Shown one piece after another: positions 3,713 to 20,936 of a DNA stretch of 64,000 nt. The DNA comes from Hyphococcus sp. (GTDB lineage Bacteria; Pseudomonadota; Alphaproteobacteria; Caulobacterales; Parvularculaceae): the NCBI GenBank assembly GCA_028281665.1, contig JANQJK010000006.1, positions 62,001-126,000 on the forward strand. The letters run 5' to 3'. Below the pieces are notes generated by a model. It saw only the letters and a list, made by a program, of their open reading frames with translations. It was not told where the DNA came from and searched no databases. The first letter of the stretch is position 1. Every line of letters starts with the position of its first letter. A program made the position numbers and the translations under genes.

Positions 3713-4057
3713 TCAGGGGAGCCCCGGAAAACTCTCCACATACTGGACCTTGATGTCCGGGAAGCTGTCGACGAGCTGAATTTTCACGTCCGGAAAACTG
3801 TCAACGAACTTCCACTGGCCGCAATCGTCCGGAAAGCTCTCGACCACCTGGACCTTGAGATCAGGAAAACTGTCCACGATCTGCACTTTCAAATCCGGGA
3901 ACGACTCAACGATCTCCACATCGCCGTAAAGCGGAAAGCCGTTGAAGGTACAGTCATCCGCGATCAGGTCTTCGGCGGCGGCGTCTGGTGCATTCAACGA
4001 GACGGCACAAAACACGGAAAGCCCGACAACCTTAGCTGTCATTTGTTTGCTCCACAT
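3713..4057 (-). CDS. Small secreted repeat protein, candidate 7(1) septoil-knot domain family
   Basis: 114 aa, likely start at internal Met (4042); signal peptide MTAKVVGLSVFCAVSLNAPDAAA; six repeats VESFPDLKVQI/VDSFPDLKVQV/VESFPDDCGQWKF/VDSFPDVKIQL/VDSFPDIKVQY/VESFPG. Confidence 0.75.
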   Translation of the reverse strand: MWSKQMTAKVVGLSVFCAVSLNAPDAAAEDLIADDCTFNGFPLYGDVEIVESFPDLKVQIVDSFPDLKVQVVESFPDDCGQWKFVDSFPDVKIQLVDSFPDIKVQYVESFPGLP

Positions 4058-5054
4058 TCTTCTCTTTGGATAAATGTACCCGGCCGATTACAAAATCTTT
4101 GTGGATGTATCCAACTCTAGAGATTACGCGACTGTCTTGTGATTGGTCACGATTATCGCCAAGCATGAAATAGTGATCAGGCGGCACTGTATAGGGGCCG
4201 ACATTGTCAAATCGCCCAAAATCGGCATCGCATTCCTTCGTCTTATAAAACACGCCATTTGGCAACGTCTCGACATAAGTCACTGCCGATCCGGCATATC
4301 GGCATCCATTGTTTGTTCCATCTACCTCTTCGCGAGCGACCGGAACTCCGTTGATATGCAGCCGCCCACCAACAAACCTGATTTCTTCACCGGGTAGCCC
4401 AACCAGCCTCTTTACATAGGTATTGAGACCGTCTTTGGCATTGCGAAAAACTACAATATCGCCACGCTCGGGAGTCTTTTCCGCAAAACGTCTGTCGGGA
4501 AGCAATATGTCAAATGGCGCGAAAGAATGCTTGTTGATTCCGTAGGCGCTTTTTTCGACAAGGAAATAACTATTTTGGCCAATCGTTGGCATCATGGATG
4601 CTGCGGCAATATGAAAAGGCTGCACCAGAAAGAACCGGATTACTAATGCAGCGGCGACAGAAATCGCGATTGGCGCCGCCCAGATAACAACATAGCCAAG
4701 CAATCGACGCGGCCCCGCTTTCTCAGCCAATCGCGGCGACTTGACGACATAAACCCAGACACCGATTACGAACGGCGTTGAAAGCAATAGATAAGCAAGA
4801 TCACTAATGTCATTGATCGCAAAGCCCGCTGGCAGTGACACGGGCGAGTTCATGTAGATATAGGTTATACCGGCTACGCCCAACGATATGGCAGCGATCC
4901 CAGAAGCAACTGACATCAAAATAGCCGCCTTAGTGCGTCGAGCATAATATAAGCCAACGCCCCACCCCAAAACTGTCAGCAACGCGGCAATCCACGGTCT
5001 GATTTTTCTTAGGTCAGAGTCGTCAACGGTCTCGTCAGCTTTCTGATCAGCCAT
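4032..5054 (-). CDS. lepB: Signal peptidase I (S26 family) with an N-terminal multi-TM extension
   Basis: 340 aa; VQPFHIAAASMMPTI (catalytic Ser), RGDIVVFRNAKDGLNTYVKRLVGLPGE (catalytic Lys), YFMLGDNRDQSQDSR. Confidence 0.9.
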   Translation of the reverse strand: MADQKADETVDDSDLRKIRPWIAALLTVLGWGVGLYYARRTKAAILMSVASGIAAISLGVAGITYIYMNSPVSLPAGFAINDISDLAYLLLSTPFVIGVWVYVVKSPRLAEKAGPRRLLGYVVIWAAPIAISVAAALVIRFFLVQPFHIAAASMMPTIGQNSYFLVEKSAYGINKHSFAPFDILLPDRRFAEKTPERGDIVVFRNAKDGLNTYVKRLVGLPGEEIRFVGGRLHINGVPVAREEVDGTNNGCRYAGSAVTYVETLPNGVFYKTKECDADFGRFDNVGPYTVPPDHYFMLGDNRDQSQDSRVISRVGYIHKDFVIGRVHLSKEKNVEQTNDS

Positions 5055-5126
5055 TCGCCTTCCTCATGCGGAACCAGATGAATGTAGCATAACTGGATCC
5101 CGGTTCGGCGCGGACGAGCCAAGCGC

Positions 5127-6626
5127 TCACAACCCAAGTTTCGCCCACAATTCATCCACCCGCCGCACCACATCCTCGTCCATCTTCATCACCTCGCCCC
5201 AGTCGCGTTTGGTTTCCGGTCCGATCTTGTCGGTGGCGTCGAGGCCGATCTTGGAGCCGAGCCCGGATTCCGGCGAGGCGAAGTCAAGATAGTCGATCGG
5301 CGTGTTTTCAATGATGGTGATGTCGCGGGCGGGGTCCATTTTTGTCGAGACCGCCCACATCACGTCTTTCCAGTCGCGGGCGTCGACATCCTCGCCGACA
5401 ACGATGATCCATTTCGTATACATGAACTGGCGCAGATAGCTCCACGCGCCCATCATCACCCGCTTGGCGTGACCCGCATAGGCCTTCTTCATACGGATGA
5501 CCGCAATACGATAGGAACACCCTTCCGGCGGCAGCCAGAAATCAATGATTTCCGGGAACTGCTGCTGCAAAAGCGGAATGAAAACCTCGTTCAGCGCCTC
5601 ACCCAGGATCGAGGGCTCGTCCGGCGGGCGGCCGGTGAAGGTCGAAAGATAAATCGGATCGCGCCGATGCGTGATCGCGGTGACGGTGAAGACCGGAAAC
5701 CGTTCGACTGAATTATAGTACCCGGTGTGATCGCCGAACGGGCCTTCATCCGCATACTCATCAAGGGAGACATATCCCTCGATCACAATCTCCGCCGCCG
5801 CCGGGACTTTGAGGGGCTGCGTCTTGCAGTCCACCAGATCGACCTTCTTGCCCCGCAGCAATCCGGCGAACTGATATTCTGACAGCGTGTCGGGAACGGG
5901 CGTCACGGCGGCGAGGATGGTGCCGGGATCGGCGCCCAGAACGGCCGCCGCCGGCAACGGTTCGCTCTTCGTCTTGCCCCAACGGGCATGGTGCTGCGCG
6001 CCGCCGCGATGTTTCAGCCAGCGCATGATCGCTTTGTCCGGCGCGATCTTCTGCATGCGGTAAATGCCAAGATTGAAATCGTCCTCGCCTTTGCCGCTCG
6101 GCCCTCTGGTGACAACGAGCGGCCAGGTGATCAACGGCCCGGCGTCTCCCGGCCAGCAGGTCTGAATGGGCAATGCGTCGAGGTTTATGTCGCCGCCGGT
6201 TTTGATGACCTCGTGTACGGGGCCGGAGCGCCTGTTCGCCGGCTTCATGGCCATCACGGTTTTCAGGAGCGGCGCCATTTTCAGGGCGTCCTTAATGCCG
6301 CCCGGCGGCTCGGGCTGGCGCAGGAAGGCCAGCAGCTCGCCGACCTCGCGCAATTCCGCGCCGGTTGTTCGCTCCTTGCCCTCCAGGGTCACGCCCATGG
6401 CGACGCGCTTCACTGTGCCAAAAAGGTTCACCAGCACCGGCGTCGGCGAAATCGAGCCGTCATCCATCACGGGCTGCTCGAACAGCACCGCGGGCCCGCC
6501 TTCGGCGAGGAGCCGAAGCTGGATTTCGGTCATCTCAAGATTGACCGCGACGGGCTCGGCCACGCGAACAAGATCGCCGGCCGCTTCCAGTCGCTCAATG
6601 AAGTCGCGCAGGGATTTGTAAGCCAT
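5127..6626 (-). CDS. ubiD: UbiD family decarboxylase
   Basis: 499 aa; [89 protein letters not shown]. Confidence 0.93.
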
Positions 6627-20861: not shown

Positions 20862-20936
20862 TGTTCCGGGCGGGGAATCGAACCCCGCAAAATCCGGTTC
20901 GAAAACCGAAAGGTCTTGCCATTAAACGACCGGAAC
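20862..20936 (-). tRNA. tRNA or tRNA-like gene, isotype uncertain (irregular anticodon loop)
   Basis: GTTCCGG/CCGGAAC 7-bp acceptor; D loop AATGGCA; T loop TTCGATT; anticodon arm TTCGG-TTTTCGAA-CCGGA has an 8-nt loop (or 6-bp stem with 6-nt loop); one extra C between T stem and acceptor; no encoded CCA. Confidence 0.75.

What the first reader, a model, noticed from the sequence alone, without database searches (positions are those of the whole stretch)
3713..4057. Secreted protein made of six SFPD repeats, candidate 7(1) septoil-knot fold
After a signal peptide the whole mature protein is six near-identical 11-13 residue units (VESFPDLKVQI VDSFPDLKVQV VESFPDDCGQWKF VDSFPDVKIQL VDSFPDIKVQY VESFPG), preceded by one short Cys-containing segment (DDCTFNGFPLYGDV) and interrupted by one Cys-containing repeat. 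Alternating V-x-V strands and invariant SFPD turns suggest a closed beta repeat fold. From memory, this pattern resembles proteins annotated as 7(1) septoil-knot domain, a small topologically knotted fold predicted by AlphaFold and confirmed for a small Ureaplasma protein. The seven-unit count would fit if PLYGDVEIV counts as a degenerate repeat. Its function is unknown.
Basis: partly seen in the sequence, partly recalled or inferred. Interest (0 to 1): 0.75.

Follow-up and report, generated by a model that had tools for sequence, protein, structure and literature searches.

The report
Exported, probably knotted repeat protein
The gene encodes a small exported protein of six near-identical repeats that belongs to the family of the most complicated protein knot yet solved; relatives occur in many bacterial phyla and on phages, so the fold is known in kind, but the exact knot type and the job of the protein remain unknown.

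Summary
A 114-codon ORF (3713-4057, minus strand; likely start at 4042, 109 aa) encodes a Sec signal peptide, a short Cys segment and six SFPD/SFPG repeats. It is under strong purifying selection (dN/dS 0.04 against one relative). A confident AlphaFold2 model (pLDDT 92.6) has significant PDB matches only to Q9PR55 structures. Two corrections. First, the knot type is not shown: TM is only about 0.6, and a Synechocystis homologue was modelled by Brems et al. as 5_1, so 5_1 is at least as likely as 7_1; counting seven units is not evidence, because the 7 counts crossings. Second, the two Cys join the N-terminal segment to the third unit; they are kept or lost together in 118 of 119 homologues, which supports a disulfide. 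The family spans many phyla, patchily. It includes prophage copies (PHROG 6462), inside tail modules beside the baseplate hub in Bacteroidetes and Leptospira. Function is unknown; best guess: a non-catalytic, very stable extracytoplasmic binder or inhibitor, spread as accessory cargo.

The parts
3713..4057 (-). ORF of the repeat protein, 114 codons from the first ATG; probable true start at 4042 (109 aa)
   Evidence: most Parvularculaceae homologues start at the position equivalent to Met6
4050..4053 (-). GGAG ribosome-binding site, 7 nt before the ATG at 4042
   Evidence: sequence; inference
3974..4042 (-). Sec signal peptide MTAKVVGLSVFCAVSLNAPDAAA, cleavage expected after AAA
   Evidence: sequence; 115 of 119 unique homologues have a hydrophobic stretch before the core
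3911..3973 (-). N-terminal mature segment EDLIADDCTFNGFPLYGDVEI with Cys36
3950..3952 (-). codon of Cys36, proposed disulfide partner of Cys79
   Evidence: Cys36 and Cys79 both present in 106, both absent in 12, uncoupled in 1 of 119 unique homologues
3878..3910 (-). repeat 1 VESFPDLKVQI
3845..3877 (-). repeat 2 VDSFPDLKVQV
3806..3844 (-). repeat 3 VESFPDDCGQWKF, two residues longer, holds Cys79 (codon 3821-3823) and the conserved Trp
3773..3805 (-). repeat 4 VDSFPDVKIQL
3740..3772 (-). repeat 5 VDSFPDIKVQY
3716..3739 (-). repeat 6, truncated, VESFPGLP
4032..5054 (-). neighbour, not part of the system: signal peptidase I-like gene (Peptidase_S26), overlaps the repeat gene by 11 bp if translation starts at 4042
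   Evidence: adjacency absent in nearest relative L021

Best explanation
It is an exported member of the Q9PR55/P73136 torus-knot family. The Sec system moves the chain unfolded across the inner membrane. In the periplasm the six 11-13-residue units (strand V-x-V-x-V plus SFPD turn) wind twice round a torus, three units per pass, giving a topologically knotted all-beta domain (5_1 or 7_1). A disulfide Cys36-Cys79 staples the N-terminal segment to the third unit. Shown: the repeats, homology to Q9PR55, a confident matching model, purifying selection, Cys coupling. Inferred: cleavage of the signal peptide, the knot in this chain, its type, the disulfide. Function is unknown; my commitment (about 0.3 for this specific role) is a non-catalytic, very stable extracytoplasmic binder or inhibitor, carried as an accessory gene and by phages as cargo. 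The confidence below is for family membership and a knotted fold, not for the role.
For: phmmer against PDB: 8iwa (UU089.1) E=2.8e-11, residues 48-104 against 28-86, next hit E=0.14; family profile E=4.8e-16, sole hit. Literature: Q9PR55 is a 7_1 knot with core 27-83, so the aligned stretch spans the knotted core; homologue P73136 (112 aa) modelled as 5_1, core 45-94 (PMC9278004); crystal 8IWA confirms Q9PR55 (PMC13352647). AF2 pLDDT 92.6, pTM 0.78, six strands; the only PDB matches below E 0.001 are Q9PR55 chains. Units 1-3 against 4-6: 21 of 28 residues identical, matching the 105-bp period. Cys both or neither in 118 of 119. dN/dS 0.037. 115 of 119 homologues have a hydrophobic N-terminus. 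Patchy spread: 376 related stretches in a collection of 85,488 species genomes; 39/63 in the family, 10/296 in the class, 6/399 in the phylum sample. Phage carriage: PHROG 6462 E=1.2e-31, viral loci.
Against: No coordinates were available, so no knot invariant was computed. TM 0.58/0.63 and rmsd 3.3 A are low for 46% identity, which may mean different threading. One of five AF2 models failed (pLDDT 45). AlphaFold ignores chain-crossing barriers (PMC10672856). No conserved neighbourhood supports any function. Some members lack both Cys or the signal peptide, so neither is required by the fold.
Confidence: 0.85

Rival explanations
1. Same family, but this chain forms the simpler 5_1 torus knot rather than 7_1, because the extra winding present in Q9PR55 is missing.
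For: P73136, a homologue of about the same total length as ours, was modelled as 5_1. Low TM to the 7_1 crystal despite 46% identity. Q9PR55 has about 25 residues before its first repeat and lacks a sixth repeat; ours has about 21 mature residues before it.
Against: Only indirect; P73136 itself was not retrieved and no polynomial was computed.
Confidence: 0.55
2. This chain forms the same 7_1 knot as Q9PR55.
For: Only solved relatives are 7_1; alignment covers the 7_1 core 27-83.
Against: As for the 5_1 rival: TM near 0.6 and the P73136 precedent.
Confidence: 0.33
3. Unknotted beta-solenoid or disordered low-complexity secreted repeat protein.
For: Regular 11-residue repeats alone would also fit a solenoid.
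Against: Clear homology to a crystal-confirmed knot, confident compact model with no significant solenoid match, a two-residue-longer third unit at a fixed place in nearly all homologues.
Confidence: 0.07
4. Functional rival: phage-derived superinfection-exclusion or lysogenic-conversion factor, later domesticated on chromosomes.
For: Prophage copies at a repeated place, antiparallel beside the baseplate hub phrog_4930 in three Bacteroidetes contigs, in the tail module of Leptospira elements, beside lysis genes in L110.
Against: Most members are chromosomal without phage genes; PADLOC has no match; in Leptospira the gene is on the late tail strand, which suits a structural or late role as well.
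Confidence: 0.2
5. Functional rival: partner or substrate of the overlapping signal peptidase I gene.
For: Overlap of 11 bp, which suggests one transcript.
Against: The nearest relative L021 has UbiD, repeat gene, GMC oxidoreductase without the peptidase gene, and no other fetched locus has it adjacent; the genome has three other S26 peptidases.
Confidence: 0.04

Closest known systems
Q9PR55 / UU089.1 of Ureaplasma (PDB 8IWA, 8IWB, 8IWC, 8JRM), 7_1 torus knot
   Same: SFPD repeats in the same order with a longer third unit, 46% identity over 68 columns, only significant structural match
   Different: Q9PR55 has 89 residues, fewer recognisable repeats and a different third unit; whether it has an export signal or a Cys pair was not examined here; global superposition poor (TM about 0.6)
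P73136 (112 aa), 5_1 knot by AlphaFold (Brems et al. 2022)
   Same: reported homologue of Q9PR55 at 48% identity; total length and core position fit the exported architecture seen here
   Different: sequence not retrieved here (that it is from Synechocystis is from memory); similarity to ours is inferred through Q9PR55 and through cyanobacterial homologues L065, L068, L095
PHROG 6462 (phage family, unknown function)
   Same: window protein matches over the whole mature part, E=1.2e-31
   Different: defined from phage copies; the window copy is chromosomal
Pfam PF19647 (DUF6150)
   Same: six units with an insert holding a Trp in the third, some with a signal peptide; I recall from memory that the name septoil knot is used for this Pfam family
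   Different: no sequence match, units of about 13 residues with a different turn; fold test inconclusive

Membership tests
Q9PR55-type torus-knot family | significant sequence similarity to Q9PR55 across the knotted core | tested here: met
   E=2.8e-11 over Q9PR55 28-86; profile 4.8e-16
Q9PR55-type torus-knot family | fold similar to 8IWA | tested here: met
   Foldseek E=1.6e-6, probability 1.00, only significant hits, but TM 0.58/0.63
Q9PR55-type torus-knot family | backbone is knotted (5_1 or 7_1) | not testable with these tools
7_1 septoil knot sensu stricto | seven essential crossings | not testable with these tools
   no coordinates; P73136 precedent is 5_1
Pfam PF19647 (DUF6150) | match above the gathering score | tested here: not met
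   no match at E<=1; none in 60 relatives; hhalign probability 0.2%
PHROG 6462 | HMM match over the full length | tested here: met
   E=1.2e-31, residues 22-109 to profile 16-103 of 103
Disulfide-stapled exported subgroup | signal peptide plus coupled Cys pair in the sequence | tested here: met
   sequence; 106 both, 12 neither, 1 uncoupled; the bond itself was not tested
Anti-phage defence (PADLOC) | match to a known defence model | tested here: not met
   no match

The most novel reading that the evidence does not exclude
A deep torus-knot fold, exported unfolded and then tied and disulfide-locked outside the cytoplasm, is a mobile accessory module shared by many phyla and carried by phages as a repeated insert next to the baseplate hub, with knot type (5_1 or 7_1) varying inside one family; it would act as a very stable superinfection-exclusion or enzyme-inhibiting protein.
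Probability: 0.15. Interest if true: 0.75.

Novelty: new member of a known kind. Interest (0 to 1): 0.5.

Why it matters
Knots with five or seven crossings were long thought unlikely to fold. Here one family supplies hundreds of natural sequences that are very similar, mostly exported, and differ in Cys pair and turn motif. That makes it testable how such a knot ties itself after Sec export, whether 5_1 and 7_1 interconvert by small sequence changes, and what selective use a knot has. The phage copies give a genetic handle on function.

Tried and rejected
Pfam and NCBIfam scans: no real hit. PF19647 (DUF6150) as the family: not met by sequence; a second AlphaFold job on four DUF6150 proteins gave pLDDT 40, uninformative, so its parallel architecture stays a lead. 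Viral structure library: nothing. INPHARED phages: no match to the window protein at 1e-5. PADLOC: nothing. Gene neighbourhood as a guide to function: only lineage-level conservation (DEAD-box helicase divergent in many Parvularculaceae, UbiD and GMC in the window and L021, urocanate hydratase-like and phosphoglycerate dehydrogenase-like genes in Ignavibacteria; names from my reading of the sequences), none shared across phyla. Co-function with the overlapping signal peptidase gene: rejected, adjacency found only in this genome among the loci fetched. The original structural paper on Q9PR55 is not in the library; only citing papers were read. Knot polynomial: impossible without coordinates.

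Full report
Observation. The ORF at 3713-4057 on the minus strand encodes 114 codons. The mature part holds six units: VESFPDLKVQI, VDSFPDLKVQV, VESFPDDCGQWKF, VDSFPDVKIQL, VDSFPDIKVQY, VESFPGLP. TRF finds the same array with a period of 105 bp, that is three units, 1.9 copies. Units 1-3 and 4-6 share 21 of 28 aligned residues. Identical residues in different units use different synonymous codons in 42 of 76 comparisons, so the repeats are kept at protein level and are not a recent duplication. A GGAG seven bases before the ATG at 4042, and the start position of homologues, suggest that the protein is 109 aa, overlapping the upstream signal peptidase gene by 11 bp.

Family. No Pfam or NCBIfam model fits. 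Against solved structures, phmmer gives 8iwa, UU089.1 (Q9PR55) of Ureaplasma, E=2.8e-11, with nothing else below 0.1; a profile of 57 homologues gives E=4.8e-16 and no other hit. Brems et al. (PMC9278004) describe Q9PR55 as a 7_1 knot with core 27-83 and its homologue P73136 (112 aa) as a 5_1 knot with core 45-94; later papers state that the 7_1 knot was confirmed by crystallography (PMC13352647; PMC11223836). The match spans the published knotted core.

Structure. AlphaFold2 on the mature 86 residues with 57 sequences gave pLDDT 92.6, pTM 0.78 and six strands. Foldseek found four PDB matches below 0.001, all Q9PR55, best E=1.6e-6, TM 0.58/0.63, rmsd 3.3 A, 46% identity over 68 columns. So the fold family is well supported, but the superposition is poorer than 46% identity would normally give. 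A difference in winding would explain that.

Topological reading (inference). The period of three units and the twofold repeat of the sequence suit a two-strand torus knot in which the chain passes twice round the ring, three units per pass.

Cysteines. In 119 unique homologues, both positions are Cys in 106, neither in 12 and only one in 1, in which another Cys lies nearby. The Cys-less forms occur in at least two separate groups: Selenomonad/Synergistes-like chromosomes and proteobacterial prophages. This supports a disulfide joining the N-terminal segment to unit 3. Relatedness of the sequences was not corrected for. Of 119 homologues, 115 have a hydrophobic stretch before the core; two of the four without it (L108, L135) also lack the Cys pair.

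Selection and spread. Against the nearest relative (L021) the mature part shows 20 synonymous and 3 amino-acid-changing codons, dN/dS 0.037. A scan of genome contigs found 376 related stretches; the 80 kept come from Alphaproteobacteria, Bacteroidota and Ignavibacteria, Myxococcota, Spirochaetota, Cyanobacteria, Burkholderiales, Selenomonads and Synergistes. It is frequent in the family of the window (39 of 63 genomes) and rare in samples of the class (10 of 296) and phylum (6 of 399). Nearly all carriers have one copy. Such patchiness with 55-75% identity across phyla suggests horizontal transfer; no tree was built.

Phages. The protein matches PHROG 6462 (E=1.2e-31), a phage family of unknown function. 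Eleven viral contigs were found with the family profile and nine with a Leptospira copy. In three Bacteroidetes-type contigs (L109, L111, L112) the gene stands antiparallel beside the baseplate hub phrog_4930. On a Leptospira weilii plasmid it lies on the same strand as the tail genes, the third gene after a phrog_4930 hub and just before baseplate J. In L110 it lies beside spanin and endolysin genes. The window copy is not in a prophage as far as its neighbours show.

Function. No conserved catalytic set is visible; the invariant residues are those of the turn and strand pattern plus the Cys pair and a Trp. No neighbourhood is shared between phyla. The signal peptidase gene beside it is absent in the nearest relative. 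I commit to a stable extracytoplasmic binder or inhibitor carried as accessory cargo (about 0.3), with superinfection exclusion or lysogenic conversion as the main rival (0.2); both are inference.

Comparison. It works like, and by sequence belongs with, the Q9PR55/P73136 family. It is not a member of PF19647 (DUF6150) by the tests applied, although that family also shows six units with a longer third; whether the two share a fold is open.

Verdict. A real gene, correctly recognised in kind, over-specified in knot type. New member of a known kind, with an interesting distribution on phages.

Noticed in passing
L109 5887-6240, L111 5902-6267, L112 5667-5960: In three Bacteroidetes-type prophage contigs the knot-family gene is inserted antiparallel at the same place in the tail module, beside the baseplate hub (phrog_4930), like a moron.
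   Followed up: partly
L101 4953-5267 (Leptospira weilii plasmid NZ_CP092209.1) and L125-L133: A diverged family member sits within the tail gene cluster of Leptospira phage-like elements, just before baseplate J, on the same strand.
   Followed up: partly
L102 about 4920-5255 (Burkholderia stagnalis): In this homologue the turn motif is TIAP in nearly every repeat in place of SFPD, as if the repeats change together; a TonB-dependent receptor-like gene follows.
   Followed up: no
L136 1450-1767, L137 1441-1758, L144, L145: DUF6150 (PF19647) proteins also consist of six units with a longer, Trp-containing third unit, but with units of about 13 residues and no detectable sequence similarity.
   Followed up: partly
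window 4032-5054 (-): An S26 signal peptidase gene, one of four in the genome, lies between UbiD and the knot gene here but is missing at the same place in the nearest relative (L021).
   Followed up: partly
window 20862-20936 (-): ARAGORN reports a tRNA with a four-base anticodon (ttcg); possibly a tRNA-Glu with an odd loop, or a false call.
   Followed up: no
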